From Candidatus Gastranaerophilales bacterium (lineage in GTDB: Bacteria > Cyanobacteriota > Vampirovibrionia > Gastranaerophilales > Gastranaerophilaceae): a stretch of 64,000 nt of DNA. The stretch is from assembly GCA_944324915.1 (NCBI GenBank), contig CALUYD010000001.1:1-64000 (forward strand), written 5' to 3'. Positions within the stretch are counted from its first letter, which is position 1. Each line of letters opens with the position of its first letter. A program made the position numbers and the translations under genes. This document shows positions 7,095 through 62,690 of this stretch, piece by piece. The notes beneath the pieces are model-generated. The model was not told where the DNA came from. It was given only the letters and a program-made list of their open reading frames with translations, and searched no databases.

Positions 7095-8144
7095 ATGGAA
7101 ATTTCCAATATTGCTTCACATCAGGTTAATTTTAAATCACAACCGCAAACTCAAACATCCCCAATAAAGGCAATCAAAAATAGATTCGAAAATTTGGAAG
7201 ATAAAGAAAAAATCACAATTGGCTTGACTGCTCTTGGCGTTTTGGCGCTAGCCGCTTTAGCTATTGCAAAAAGACCGCATAAGGCTGCTGAAGTTGCGCA
7301 AGAAGTAGTTCAAAATTCACAAAAAGGTGCAGATGAAGTTGCAGAAGTTGCGCAAGAAGTAGTTCAATCAGCACAAAGCGCAGTAGGACACATAAGCAAA
7401 GAAGAAAAAACAGCTAATGCAGTAGCAGAAGGTATTGAAAAGGGGAAACAAGCAGTTTATGAATACTTGGAAAATAACGGAAACTATGGACAAATAAAAC
7501 AACAAGCAACAAGAAACCAAACTAAAACCGGTAAAAAAGTTGCAAAAGCAATGCTTCAAGAAGCCCACAGTGCCAAAGTTGCACAAGATATAGCAAATAG
7601 CCACAATCTTTCAAATGCAACAGTGCAAGCAACTCAAAGTGCAAATATAGCAAAAAGTACACGCCAAGGATTGCAAAATGTTACTGATGGCAAAAAATTG
7701 AAAGAAAGTATTGATACAGCAATAAATGCAGCTGAAAATGCCAAAGAAAAAGCAGTTGAAGCAAGAAAATTGGCAGATGAAATCGGTACAAAAAAAGCTA
7801 AAAAAGCAGCATATAGAGCAGAAAAAGCTGCCGAAAGAACAAAAGTTGAAGCAGACAAGACAGAAATCAAAGCAATCAAACAAGCTATTAATATTGATGA
7901 ACAAAATGCTCAAAAAAATTCCAATAGAGCAGATCAAATGTCAAGTCCAAATTTTGAAGACGGACTAATTAAACAAATGCTAAATGAAGATAAAGGTGCT
8001 AAAACAAGACTTAAAAACTTAATTAAAAAGAAAACTCAACATGGCAAAATGAGCGAAAAACAAGCACTTGAAGCAATTGTAAATGACTCAAAAGAAACTG
8101 AATTAACAAGAAAATTAGCCAAAGAAAGATTAGCAAACTTATAA
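7095..8144 (+). CDS. Lys/Ala-rich helical protein with one membrane segment, function unknown
   Basis: 349 aa, not recognised. The N-terminal 40 residues include 'VNFKS', a short motif also echoed in two other orphan proteins of this window. Residues about 41-59 (ITIGLTALGVLALAALAIA) form one membrane helix. The rest is low-complexity Ala/Lys/Glu/Gln helix with short internal repeats ('AEVAQEVVQ' twice near 63-95; 'AENAKEKAVEARKLADE'), suggesting a long coiled coil or apolipoprotein-like helix. A strong ribosome-binding site (AAAGGTG) and an intrinsic terminator frame it as a single-gene transcript, facing the XRE regulator. Confidence 0.75.
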   Translation: MEISNIASHQVNFKSQPQTQTSPIKAIKNRFENLEDKEKITIGLTALGVLALAALAIAKRPHKAAEVAQEVVQNSQKGADEVAEVAQEVVQSAQSAVGHISKEEKTANAVAEGIEKGKQAVYEYLENNGNYGQIKQQATRNQTKTGKKVAKAMLQEAHSAKVAQDIANSHNLSNATVQATQSANIAKSTRQGLQNVTDGKKLKESIDTAINAAENAKEKAVEARKLADEIGTKKAKKAAYRAEKAAERTKVEADKTEIKAIKQAINIDEQNAQKNSNRADQMSSPNFEDGLIKQMLNEDKGAKTRLKNLIKKKTQHGKMSEKQALEAIVNDSKETELTRKLAKERLANL

Positions 8145-20561: not shown

Positions 20562-20605
20562 AAATAAGCAGTCAGAAATGGCTGGTGAAAGTTAAATATA
20601 AATTT

Positions 20606-20815
20606 GCGTCTGTAGCTCAGCACTCGGTGAAGCTCGCTGAAACGGTAAGAAATAGCACATGCTCTACCTGCTGAGATAAGACAATGAAAATTGAATAGAG
20701 TATAAAGTTTGCGTCTGTAGCTCAGCACTCGGTGAAGCTCGCTGAAACGGTAAGAAATAGCACATGCTCTACCTGCTGAGATAAGACAATGAAAATTGAA
20801 TAAAGTATAAAGTTT
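20606..20815 (+). repeat. Two tandem 105-bp units derived from the tRNA-Lys 5' half
   Basis: Units at 20606-20710 and 20711-20815 differ at one position. Each begins with the first 17 nt of the tRNA (GCGTCTGTAGCTCAGCA), then a unique 36-nt stretch, then TGCTCTACCTGCTGAG. That last element is the exact reverse complement of the tRNA D-arm segment CTCAGCAGGTAGAGCA. Each unit can fold through CTCAGCA/TGCTGAG and GTCT/AGAC. The last 30 or so bases of each unit lead directly into the next tRNA-like start, and the third period is the intact tRNA. Confidence 0.9.
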
Positions 20816-20888
20816 GCGTCTGTAGCTCAGCAGGTAGAGCACTCCCCTTTTAAGGGATAGGTCGCGCGTTCGAATCGCGCCAGACGCA
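20816..20888 (+). tRNA. tRNA-Lys (anticodon UUU)
   Basis: A 73-nt cloverleaf. The acceptor GCGTCTG pairs with CAGACGC, the D arm is GCTC/GAGC, the anticodon loop is CTTTTAA (anticodon TTT), and the T arm is GCGCG/CGCGC with loop TTCGAAT. The discriminator base is A and CCA is not encoded. The outermost anticodon-stem pair is C-T. It follows two partial copies of its own 5' end. Confidence 0.95.
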
Positions 20889-20900
20889 AATTTTTTATGC

Positions 20901-59588: not shown

Positions 59589-59669
59589 AGCGAATTTCAG
59601 CCCTTCTCAATCTAAAGATTTAGATACAAAGTTGCACGCCATATAGGGTAAATTTAAACCTTGCTATTG

Positions 59670-59701
59670 ATGAATATACCGCCTAAAAGAAGTATATTCA
59701 T
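59670..59701. promoter_or_regulatory. 10-bp perfect inverted repeat upstream of the response regulator
   Basis: ATGAATATAC (59670-59679) and GTATATTCAT (59692-59701) flank a 12-nt centre. The repeat lies about 60 bp before the regulator start, a position suitable for an operator or leader hairpin. The rest of 59589-59749 shows no further feature except the AT-rich stretch before GGAGG. Confidence 0.45.
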
Positions 59702-59761
59702 AATGTAAGTTACGCAATTTAGATTAAATTTTACAAAAAAATATACTTTTTGGAGGGGTTA

Positions 59762-60475
59762 ATGAGAAGAACAGTGGATTTCAAAAGGAAGCAAAAAGTC
59801 ATTGTCGTTGATGACAAATATGAACATGCTTCAGGTGTTCGCGAGTTGGTAAATCTGGAAAATGATTATGAGGTTATCGCAAATGCAGGTAATGCAAATG
59901 TTGCAATTTCATTAATTAAAAAATATCAACCGGACATTGTTTTAATGGATGTTAATATGCCTGAAATGGACGGTATTAACGCTATTGCAGAAATTCAAAA
60001 ACTAAATTTAAAAACAAGAGTTATAGTACTCACTGCTTATGATGATGCTGATTTGATTTATAGAGCAATGAAAGTTGGAGCTTGCGGATATGTTCTAAAA
60101 ACTATGGTTTCAGCTCAACTTATTAAAGCGCTGGATGAAGTATCAATGGGCAAAATCTATTTACCAACTATTCTTTGTTCAAAATTCTTTGAATATTTCC
60201 AAGATTTTGAAAAGAATGGTCAAGCAAATCAAGAAGATGATAATGAAGAAAACTTGCTTCATTACTTAACAAATAGAGAAGAAGAAGTTTTATCTTTACT
60301 TTTAGAAGGCGCAACTTATAAAGACGTTGCAAGAGAATTGTTTATCTCTGAAACAACAGTAAAAACTCATGTAAACAACATTTTCCAAAAACTTCAAGTT
60401 AAAGAAAAAACTCAAGCTGTACTTTATGCAATCAATAAAGGCTTCAAGCCAAAAGCTAAAAAAATCGCTGTGTAG
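59762..60475 (+). CDS. NarL/LuxR-type response regulator
   Basis: 237 aa. Receiver domain (about 12-130) with 'VIVVDDKY', phospho-acceptor D63 in 'VLMDVNMPEMDG', 'VLTAYDD' and 'VLKTM'. LuxR-type HTH at about 165-228 ('LTNREEEVLSLLLEGATYKDVARELFISETTVKTHVNNIFQKL'). The ATG at 59762 follows GGAGG by 5 nt; a TTG four codons upstream is less likely. Next genes on the same strand are a histidine kinase and flgB-flgC-fliE, so it is a candidate flagellar regulator of the NarL class rather than the NtrC class. Confidence 0.93.
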   Translation: MRRTVDFKRKQKVIVVDDKYEHASGVRELVNLENDYEVIANAGNANVAISLIKKYQPDIVLMDVNMPEMDGINAIAEIQKLNLKTRVIVLTAYDDADLIYRAMKVGACGYVLKTMVSAQLIKALDEVSMGKIYLPTILCSKFFEYFQDFEKNGQANQEDDNEENLLHYLTNREEEVLSLLLEGATYKDVARELFISETTVKTHVNNIFQKLQVKEKTQAVLYAINKGFKPKAKKIAV

Positions 60476-60482
60476 CAACCCA

Positions 60483-60545
60483 AGCGAAGCGAAACGTAGT
60501 GCGACTGCACACGTTGAGCAAAGCGAGGGCAAAGGTGTGCGAAGC
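60483..60545 (+). repeat. 63-bp direct repeat, copy 1
   Basis: Identical to 60708-60770 (offset 225). Begins AGCGAAGCGAAACGTAG and ends GTGTGCGAAGC. Contains the inner inverted element GTGCGACTGCAC. Confidence 0.92.
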
Positions 60546-60594
60546 TCGTGACGGCAGAGCGTTGAGCTCTGGCGAACAGAGCGTAGTCCGTACC
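60525..60594 (+). repeat. 70-bp direct repeat, copy 1
   Basis: Identical to 60635-60704 (offset 110). Holds the CAGAGC-GTTGA-GCTCTG hairpin and ends GTAGTCCGTACC. Overlaps the 63-bp repeat by 21 bp. Confidence 0.92.
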
Positions 60595-60634
60595 CGAACC
60601 GAGCGAGTTTAGCGATAGCTTAACAAGCGAAGGT

Positions 60635-60704
60635 GAGGGCAAAGGTGTGCGAAGCTCGTGACGGCAGAGCGTTGAGCTCTGGCGAACAGAGCGTAGTCCG
60701 TACC
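60635..60704 (+). repeat. 70-bp direct repeat, copy 2
   Basis: Second exact copy of 60525-60594, preceded by a partly different 40-bp segment containing AGCGATAGCT. Confidence 0.92.
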
Positions 60705-60707
60705 ACG

Positions 60708-60770
60708 AGCGAAGCGAAACGTAGTGCGACTGCACACGTTGAGCAAAGCGAGGGCAAAGGTGTGCGAAGC
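60708..60770 (+). repeat. 63-bp direct repeat, copy 2
   Basis: Second exact copy of 60483-60545. After it the sequence switches to the ATGCGCTAGCCG element rather than the 70-bp element, showing modular assembly. Confidence 0.92.
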
Positions 60771-60977
60771 ATGCGCTAGCCGTGTGTGAAGCCGTGAAAA
60801 TGGCAAGGCGTTGAGCCTTGACATTTTAGGCGTAACCGTTCGACGGCGACGTGGAAATCTTCGATTTCCTCAGGAGCATGCGCTAGCCGGTGCGATAACG
60901 AGCTTTCGTAGAGAAAGCGAGTTAAGCACTACGACGCCAACACAGCCACAAATCAAACCTTAAATGGTAAGTAAAAA

Positions 60978-62201
60978 ATGAACAAAACAGAAAAAAACTT
61001 TAATATTTACTTTGAAAACAAAGACTTAACACAAGATGAAACATACTCATCCAATGTTGTTAAGTCTTTAATTCGAAGCATATTAGAGCCTGTTGTAAGC
61101 AATAATTCAAAAGCAATAATTTTTACGCATCTAAAAGATTATCCTGAAACTCAAGGAATAATCAAAAGACTTGAATATTGCGCTAATGCAAACCTAATAA
61201 AAATTAGCGACTTTGAATTTTCAAAATTTGATGTCGAAGAAATAGGCTTTGTTGTTTTAACATCTCAAAGATACAATGCAGCATTTTTGTTCAAAGAAAC
61301 AGAAGAAAATAAATTTCAAATTTATCTTAAATTAAATTCTAAACTTGTAAACGATGTTTATGAAACAATAAAATCAACATTTTTAATCAATTTTGATGAA
61401 GAATTTTATGCTCATAAGCCGGAAAGACGTGATAACACTTTAATGAACAGTGCAATTTCAAATATTCTTAAATATTTTGAAGAAGCAATACAAGAGAGTG
61501 AATACAATTCAAAAATTCAAGAAAATTACAAAACAATTAACGAAACAAATACAAATTTCAGAAATGAAATCTATCAAAATATTAAACAAATTGCGCATGA
61601 AATCAAAAATCAATTGAGCATTTTAGATATTTATACAAGAATTTATGAAAAGAAAACAGGCGATTTAGAAACATCAGAACCTATAAGAAAATCTGTTAGT
61701 CTTATAAAAGCTCAAATTGAACAATTTAAAAATATTGATGTAGTAAATCTGCAAGAAAAAAATATTAAAACTATCATCCAAGATTCAATAAAAGTTTATA
61801 GCGGACTTTTAAAAGAAAAAAACAATAAATTAATTCTAATTGATGAAATGGCGGCGCTTGAGGCTAATTGTTTTGTGGATGAAGAAAAATTCTCAATAGT
61901 AATTAATAATGTTATTAAAAATGCACATGATTCAACTCAAAATGATGAAATAATCATAAAGTTGCAACAAATCGAAGAAAAAGTTAGAATTTCAATTATA
62001 AACCACGGCGAAATGATTGAAAAAAGCCAACAAGAAAAAATATTCGAAAAAGGATATACAACTAAAAAAGATGGATGGGGAATAGGATTATCAGTTTGCA
62101 AAAAATTCATAGGTTCACAATTTGGAACATTTGAATTAGCTAAAAGCGATGAAAACGAAACAATTTTCACGCTGACATTGCCTTTAGCTCAAACAAAATA
62201 A
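60978..62201 (+). CDS. Soluble histidine kinase
   Basis: 407 aa, no membrane helix. A non-conserved sensory N-terminal half (about 1-185), then a dimerisation helix with phospho-accepting H207 in 'QIAHEIKNQLSILDIY', N box 'INNVIKNAHDS' and G boxes 'TKKDGWGIGLSVCKKFIG'. Probably the partner of the response regulator 500 bp upstream. Located directly before flgB (21 bp), comparable in position and type to the cytoplasmic kinases that control flagellar gene hierarchies. Confidence 0.92.
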   Translation: MNKTEKNFNIYFENKDLTQDETYSSNVVKSLIRSILEPVVSNNSKAIIFTHLKDYPETQGIIKRLEYCANANLIKISDFEFSKFDVEEIGFVVLTSQRYNAAFLFKETEENKFQIYLKLNSKLVNDVYETIKSTFLINFDEEFYAHKPERRDNTLMNSAISNILKYFEEAIQESEYNSKIQENYKTINETNTNFRNEIYQNIKQIAHEIKNQLSILDIYTRIYEKKTGDLETSEPIRKSVSLIKAQIEQFKNIDVVNLQEKNIKTIIQDSIKVYSGLLKEKNNKLILIDEMAALEANCFVDEEKFSIVINNVIKNAHDSTQNDEIIIKLQQIEEKVRISIINHGEMIEKSQQEKIFEKGYTTKKDGWGIGLSVCKKFIGSQFGTFELAKSDENETIFTLTLPLAQTK

Positions 62202-62222
62202 TCAAAAAATAAGGATAGAATT

Positions 62223-62690
62223 ATGGATTTTATAGACAACAGAACAAGAGCAATAGGAGCTATGGCGCTTGACGGTTTGCAAGAAAGAGCAAAAGCAATA
62301 AGTGCCAATACCGTTAATGTCTTAACTCCAAATTATCAAAGAAAAGAAGTATCATTTGAGCAAAGTCTGCAAAATATCATTGCTCGTGAAAACGAAAAAG
62401 AACAAATTAAACTAAATAATTCACAAATGTATCAAAAAAACCCTAATGCGGTTTTAGAAGGTCAAAGTCCCGCTCAAATTGCATTTTTAAACACTGCTTA
62501 TGAAGACGGATATTCAATAAATGTTGAAAATGATACATCTGAACCATTGGGTTTAAACGGAAATAATGTTAATTTAGAATCAGAAATGATGGATGAAGCT
62601 AAAAACGGTATGCAATATCAAGTTGTAGCATCGTTATTATCAAAATCTTACGCTATGATGAACACTATCATCAAAGGTCAAAATCAATAA
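62223..62690 (+). CDS. flgB: Flagellar basal-body rod protein FlgB
   Basis: 155 aa. 'IGAMALDGLQERAKAISANTVNVLTPNYQRKEVSFEQSLQNII' at the N-terminus and 'LESEMMDEAKNGMQYQVVASLLSKSYAMMNTIIKG' at the C-terminus match FlgB. AAGGAT lies before the ATG. Confidence 0.93.
   Translation: MDFIDNRTRAIGAMALDGLQERAKAISANTVNVLTPNYQRKEVSFEQSLQNIIARENEKEQIKLNNSQMYQKNPNAVLEGQSPAQIAFLNTAYEDGYSINVENDTSEPLGLNGNNVNLESEMMDEAKNGMQYQVVASLLSKSYAMMNTIIKGQNQ

What the first reader, a model, noticed from the sequence alone, without database searches (positions are those of the whole stretch)
60476..60960. GC-rich modular hairpin array inside a two-component/flagellar operon
About 485 bp of sharply different composition sits between the response regulator and its kinase. 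It is a mosaic of exact 63-bp and 70-bp repeats, a 15-bp element and at least four hairpins, three with the loop GTTGA and one with GTAGA. There is no ORF. The modules are reused in different orders (63 then 70; 70 alone; 63 then a different element), which looks like cassette assembly. It may be a family of dispersed structured repeats (a REP/MITE-like element unknown to me) or an RNA regulating the kinase-to-regulator ratio.
Basis: seen in the sequence. Interest (0 to 1): 0.78.

Follow-up and report, generated by a model that had tools for sequence, protein, structure and literature searches.

The report
Mobile mosaic hairpin repeat array
A GC-rich stretch between two signalling genes of a gut bacterium (order Gastranaerophilales) is one copy of an apparently undescribed family of small modular hairpin repeats scattered through the genome and its relatives; it behaves like mobile or expanding DNA rather than a switch for these two genes.

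Summary
Window 60476-60936 is a GC-rich (about 54%, genome near 30%) mosaic of exact 70-, 63- and 15-nt repeats and hairpins, between a NarL/FixJ-type response regulator and its kinase, upstream of flgC and fliE.

It is one array of a dispersed repeat family. The window's genome has 24 matches at about 11 places; 27 of 28 genus members examined carry the family. In a 241-genome order sample it is patchy and nearly confined to one family. The basic unit is about 115 nt (two hairpin rods, CCCGAG...CGTACC), optionally with a third hairpin. Covariation is strong, and G-A/G-A tandem mismatches occur 17-fold more often than in shuffled arrays.

At the RR-kinase junction of 26 relatives, 8 hold different arrays (one reversed), 2 apparent remnants, the rest none. 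Empty sites elsewhere place the left edge at stop codons or after terminator T-runs. At tRNA genes arrays are always upstream in the tRNA's sense, flanked by 23-68-nt duplications of leader plus tRNA 5' end.

No Y1 transposase, reverse transcriptase, TnpB or IS110 enzyme is in the window's genome, so the mover is unknown. The 'kinase:regulator ratio' idea is not supported; dispersed mobile structured repeats are.

The parts
59762..60475 (+). Response regulator (receiver + LuxR/GerE HTH); its stop codon TAG 60473-60475 abuts the array
   Evidence: 93-100% identical in 26 genus genomes
60479..60529 (+). Hairpin rod H1, copy a (CCCAAGC...GCGAGGG)
60534..60594 (+). Hairpin H2, copy a (GGTGTG...GTTGA loop...CGTACC)
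   Evidence: model R1 match 60525-60594, 90.9 bits
60593..60639 (+). H1, copy b, a different H1 sequence (CCCGAACCGAGCG...GTGAGGG)
60644..60704 (+). H2, copy b, identical to copy a
   Evidence: model R1 match 60635-60704
60705..60770 (+). H1, copy c (same sequence as copy a) plus truncated H2 start GGTGTGCGAAGC
   Evidence: 63-nt exact repeat
60771..60781 (+). Linker mini-hairpin ATGCGCTAGCC (GC-GCTA-GC), copy 1
60782..60841 (+). H2-prime hairpin (GTGTGTGAAGCC...GTTGA...GGCGTAACCGTTC); the same core is at this locus in relative G008
   Evidence: match 60782-60841, 26.6 bits
60845..60877 (+). H3 hairpin (GGCGACG-[GGAAATC TTC GATTTCC]-CAGGAGC)
60878..60888 (+). Linker mini-hairpin ATGCGCTAGCC, copy 2
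60889..60936 (+). H2-double-prime hairpin (GGTGCGATAACGAGC...GTAGA...GCGAGTTAAGCACTACGACG)
   Evidence: module in other arrays of this genome and in other Gastranaerophilales MAGs
60978..62201 (+). Histidine kinase downstream of the array
   Evidence: 61-93% identical in relatives

Best explanation
The stretch is one array of a dispersed, mobile, mosaic repeat family of Gastranaerophilales. The unit is a non-coding ~115-nt element of two hairpin rods (5'-CCCGAG...CGTACC-3'), often followed by a third short hairpin (GCGACG...CAGGAGC). Units land in transcribed DNA, mostly in the sense orientation: right after stop codons, after terminator T-runs, or at the 5' end of tRNA genes with duplication of tRNA leader plus 5' end. 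Arrays then grow by further insertions, by duplication of the neighbouring linker and by exchange of hairpin cassettes between arrays. Shown: family, distribution, empty sites, flanking duplications, cassette swapping, and conservation of the structure of the + strand. Inferred: that movement is transposition-like and the arrays are tolerated passengers without a locus-specific role; that the conserved shape may be that of single-stranded DNA (for example the non-template strand during transcription, or an ssDNA intermediate) as much as RNA. The enzyme is unknown.
For: 24 matches at about 11 places in the genome, about 14 with model R1; 27 of 28 genus genomes positive; 45 of 241 in an order sample, all but one in the same family. 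RR-kinase junction: 8 of 26 with arrays of different make-up, one reversed, others 38-149 nt and AT-rich. Empty versus filled: tpiA 3' end, an S8-like ribosomal gene, and a terminator T-run. All 12 arrays at tRNA genes lie upstream in the tRNA's sense with 23-68-nt leader + tRNA-5' direct repeats, the best an exact ~61-62 nt. Away from tRNAs, after merging orthologous sites, the upstream gene points into the array 29:14. Linker repeated on both sides of a unit. Covariation: 44 double-change cells against 11 in shuffles, 92% paired against 26-50% in slid controls. GA/GA 2x2 mismatches 27 against 1.6. GC-GNNA-GC 103 against 30 and GC-GNA-GC 92 against 29, reverse complements depleted.
Against: No mobilising enzyme found; no insertion seen in real time; most genomes are fragmented assemblies and many arrays sit at contig ends. 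Flanking direct repeats can be homogenised by recombination (tRNA-Lys leader), so they do not prove target-site duplication. The orientation bias outside tRNAs is modest (p about 0.03 by my arithmetic) and could be selection against insertions elsewhere.
Confidence: 0.72

Rival explanations
1. A cis-acting RNA (attenuator, processing or stabilising element) between regulator and kinase that sets their ratio.
For: Sense orientation, very stable predicted fold, position right behind the RR stop codon; several array-free relatives have a simple AT-rich hairpin at the same place.
Against: Not conserved at this position: absent in many relatives, replaced by unrelated arrays, inverted in G005. No terminator-like site in 59600-62300. 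The same modules lie behind unrelated genes and in front of tRNAs.
Confidence: 0.1
2. A REP/REPIN or MITE system mobilised by a Y1 (RAYT) or DDE transposase, now lost or unrecognised.
For: Small palindromic dispersed intergenic units downstream of genes, as described for REPs (PMC3733652); cassette mosaics as in BOX (PMC3049150).
Against: Y1_Tnp in 1 of 26 genus genomes and not in the window's own; TnpB zinc-ribbon and IS110 families absent at cut-off; no terminal inverted repeats; flanking duplications of 23-68 nt.
Confidence: 0.12
3. A retro-element: a structured RNA copied into DNA (SINE-like or group IIC-like, which also lands behind terminators), giving variable long target duplications.
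For: Variable 23-68-nt duplications, sense orientation, edges behind terminators and tRNA 5' ends, strong covariation.
Against: No RVT_1 domain in the window's genome and in 15 of 26 genus genomes; no Rfam match; loops show no preference for GNRA over GNYA.
Confidence: 0.15
4. No transposition: arrays arise and change by replication slippage, template switching and recombination among existing hairpins.
For: Homogenised linkers and leaders, almost no G-T intermediates in the stems near the loops, tandem duplications inside arrays.
Against: Does not readily explain copies behind many unrelated genes with empty sites in relatives.
Confidence: 0.2

Closest known systems
BOX elements of Streptococcus pneumoniae (PMC3049150)
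   Same: Modular composite intergenic repeats, variable module number, 67-637 bp, strong predicted folds, near gene ends, no known own transposase
   Different: Here no terminal inverted repeats seen, flanking duplications up to 68 nt, sense insertion at tRNA 5' ends, GC-rich in a ~30% GC genome; sequence not compared directly
REP/REPIN with RAYT transposases (PMC3733652, PMC3116915)
   Same: Dispersed extragenic palindromes, often behind genes, clusters, single-strand hairpins
   Different: Units of 115-160 nt with several hairpins; no RAYT in the genome
Repetitive hairpin-forming / double-hairpin elements of mitochondria (PMC2800124)
   Same: Hairpin repeats invading intergenic regions with fast turnover and no known mobiliser
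   Different: Bacterial chromosome; covarying stems; long flanking duplications at tRNAs
Small dispersed repeats (SDR) of cyanobacteria (recalled; cited in PMC3116915)
   Same: Very small mobile hairpin repeats, nested insertions, in the sister lineage
   Different: SDRs are about 21-27 nt as I recall; not compared by sequence here
Extra-stable DNA mini-hairpins GC-GNA-GC and GC-GNNA-GC (PMC4686876)
   Same: The linker loops follow this rule exactly, N unrestricted
   Different: Known as synthetic or selected oligonucleotides, not as a repeat family

Membership tests
REP/REPIN (RAYT-mobilised) | Cognate Y1 tyrosine transposase (RAYT) in the genome | tested here: not met
   PF01797: 0 in own genome, 1 of 26 in genus
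REP/REPIN (RAYT-mobilised) | Single 20-40 bp palindrome tagged GTAG | tested here: not met
   Unit is 61-nt H2 within a ~115-nt H1-H2 element of several hairpins
MITE | Terminal inverted repeats | tested here: not met
   No inverted pair brackets the array; the only pair reported lies in the kinase gene
MITE | Short fixed-length target-site duplication | tested here: not met
   Flanking repeats at tRNAs vary from 23 to 68 nt; none found at many other sites
BOX-type modular repeat | Modules reused in varying number and order in intergenic regions | tested here: met
   H1, H2 variants, H3 variants and linkers recombined between arrays
BOX-type modular repeat | Sequence relationship to boxA/boxB/boxC | not tested
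   No BOX model was at hand
Group II intron derivative or other described structured RNA | Match to an Rfam covariance model | tested here: not met
   No match at gathering score, only chance-level at E = 3
Cis-regulatory RNA of the RR-kinase pair | Conservation at the orthologous position | tested here: not met
Intrinsic terminator/attenuator | GC-rich stem followed by a T-run | tested here: not met
   0 terminator-like sites in 59600-62300
Phage- or plasmid-borne repeat | Presence in phage or plasmid records | tested here: not met
   No match in phages, plasmids or IMG/VR patterns

The most novel reading that the evidence does not exclude
A new class of mobile element: a protein-free, roughly 115-nt nucleic acid whose sense strand folds by single-stranded-DNA rules (GNA/GNNA mini-hairpins, tandem sheared G-A pairs), inserted in the sense direction behind stop codons, terminators and at tRNA 5' ends with long duplications, moved by a host process not yet known.
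Probability: 0.25. Interest if true: 0.82.

Novelty: new variant of a known kind. Interest (0 to 1): 0.52.

Why it matters
It adds a structurally well-defined repeat family in the non-photosynthetic sister group of cyanobacteria. Its combination of covarying stems, DNA-type mini-hairpin loops, tRNA-5'-end duplications and absence of known mobilising enzymes makes it a usable case for how transposase-less small repeats spread in bacteria. It also warns that intergenic gaps in these operons can be array insertions rather than regulators, and that such arrays often break assemblies.

Tried and rejected
Rfam scans at gathering score and permissive E-value: nothing. Phage, plasmid and viral collections: nothing. 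Mobilisers Y1, RVT_1, TnpB zinc ribbon, IS110: none in the own genome. Coding role: only a repeat-made minus-strand frame. CRISPR- or TIGR-like guide array: rejected because the stretches between linkers are self-pairing hairpins shared between arrays, not unique spacers. Integron attC and group II intron 5' end (GTGYG): considered from memory and dropped, not tested with a model. Wobble test for RNA versus DNA: stems near the loop have almost no G-T or A-C, but the wider single-mismatch count does not exceed background, so it was not used as proof. An attempt to list repeats on minus-strand regions errored. Literature searches found no description of this family.

Full report
WHAT IS THERE. 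The window array runs from the base after the response-regulator stop codon (TAG 60473-60475) to about 60936. It contains an exact 70-nt repeat (60525-60594, 60635-60704), an exact 63-nt repeat (60483-60545, 60708-60770) and an exact 15-nt repeat (60768-60782, 60875-60889). Three hairpin loops read GTTGA and one GTAGA, as reported. The RR-kinase intergenic stretch is 54% GC in surroundings of about 25-35%. The neighbours are a Response_reg + GerE regulator, a HATPase_c kinase, a flagellar rod protein and FliE. There is no terminator-like site. Folded as RNA, the + strand is far more stable than shuffles, z = -6.3, and more stable than the minus strand.

A DISPERSED FAMILY. The own genome (1.8 Mb, 36 contigs) has 24 BLAST matches at about 11 places. 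Model R1 adds weaker sites, about 14 places in all. Among 28 genomes of the genus 27 are positive. With R1, 45 of 241 genomes of the order and 17 of 292 of a phylum sample are positive, all but one in one family. Exact modules occur in named MAGs of Candidatus Gastranaerophilales. Phage, plasmid and viral collections have none, and Rfam has no match.

ANATOMY. The unit has three hairpins. H1 is a rod, CCC-GA-GC...GC-GA-GGG. H2 is GGTGTG-YGAA-stem-stem-GNNGA loop-...-CGTACC. H3 is GCGAC-GT-[variable hairpin]-CA-GGAGC. RNAalifold on 14 diverse H2 units gave the same structure unprompted. Covariation is strong: 44 double-change cells against 11.0 +/- 2.6 in shuffles; 92% of cells paired against 26-50% in slid controls. 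Tandem GA/GA mismatches are 17-fold over shuffled arrays, 27 against 1.6. Where H1 is missing, its place is taken by a linker with a mini-hairpin GC-GNNA-GC or GC-GNA-GC. These motifs are enriched about threefold (103 against 30; 92 against 29), their reverse complements are depleted, and the third loop base shows no purine preference: GNYA 40 against 9, GNRA 63 against 21. This is the rule for extra-stable DNA mini-hairpins, GNA or GNNA with any N (PMC4686876). RNA tetraloops would favour GNRA (established knowledge). I take it as a hint, not proof, that single-stranded DNA folding matters; units share ancestry, so the counts are not independent.

MODULES ARE SWAPPED. H2 variants, H3 variants and linkers occur in different combinations in different arrays. 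Within one array the linker tends to be repeated on both sides of a unit while it differs between arrays.

THE SAME JUNCTION IN RELATIVES. In 26 genomes the response regulator is 93-100% identical, yet the gap to the kinase varies. It is 38-52 nt and AT-rich in G021, G019, G016, G018, G025, G002 and G010; others have a simple AT-rich hairpin. G000, G008, G011, G020, G004, G012 and G006 hold arrays of different make-up, G005 holds a unit in the opposite orientation, and G017 and G014 look like remnants. G000 and G008 share a 99.6% identical regulator but have 502- and 296-nt gaps that share the H2-prime core and the right flank. This is a hot spot with fast turnover, not a conserved regulatory RNA.

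WHERE UNITS SIT. Empty and filled sites show a left edge at or in the last codons before the stop of tpiA, directly after the stop of a ribosomal-protein gene (S8-like; both gene names are my reading of the C termini), and directly after a terminator T-run in L025/L036 (empty in G017). After merging orthologous sites, the upstream gene points into the array at 29 sites and away at 14 (two-sided p about 0.03, my arithmetic). All 12 arrays at tRNA genes lie upstream in the tRNA's own sense. There the order is leader + tRNA 5' end, array, leader + complete tRNA, with the duplicated stretch 23-68 nt long; the L169 copy matches over its full ~61-62 nt. Such duplications keep the tRNA intact.

WHO MOVES IT. 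The own genome (99.98% complete) has no Y1 transposase, RT, TnpB zinc-ribbon or IS110 family match. Across the genus these are absent (Y1 1 of 26; TnpB and IS110 0 of 26 at cut-off) or patchy (RT 11 of 26). REP/RAYT membership therefore fails. The duplications resemble variable target-site duplications, but the tRNA-Lys locus shows that neighbouring repeats are homogenised, so exact identity is not proof of recent insertion.

CONCLUSION. The evidence fits a mobile or expanding mosaic repeat family tolerated in transcribed intergenic DNA. It works like BOX or mitochondrial hairpin elements (PMC3049150; PMC2800124) without demonstrable membership in any. A direct role in the regulator-kinase ratio is unlikely; the mode of movement is open.

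Noticed in passing
window 20603-20830, upstream of tRNA-Lys(ttt) 20815-20889: Two tandem ~105-nt units, each leader + first 17 nt of tRNA-Lys + ~57-nt insert ending GCTCTACCTGCTGA, the exact reverse complement of the tRNA's TCAGCAGGTAGAGC. Copy number is 0, 1 or 2 across the genus, and the leader is genome-specific but nearly identical between copies. Same architecture as the arrays at tRNA genes; could be a tRNA-derived RNA or a second element family.
   Followed up: partly
L032 2626-2707, L033 3017-3130, L045, L189, L216 (tRNA-Pro region): A second small hairpin element (GTAGCAGGGWCCCC...GGGGGTGCGCA...CCGAGGGTA) inserted at nt ~11 of tRNA-Pro with duplicated leader.
   Followed up: partly
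L203 around 1450-1700 (SRP RNA 1157-1252, tRNA-Leu 1700): Array between the small SRP RNA and tRNA-Leu with a 68-nt near-exact duplication of the tRNA leader.
   Followed up: no
L026, L029/L101, L030, L036 flanks: Another dispersed repeat next to arrays: GTCATGCTGAA...TTTCAGCATCT and CCCTGAAAC...GTTCAGGGTGAC palindromes.
   Followed up: no
window 59762-60475 vs 60978-62201: The response regulator is 93-100% identical across the genus while its kinase falls to 61%, an unusual contrast for a cognate pair.
   Followed up: no
window 7290-7375: In-frame 54-nt-spaced repeat GAAGTTGCGCAAGAAGTAGTTCAA in a likely coding sequence.
   Followed up: no
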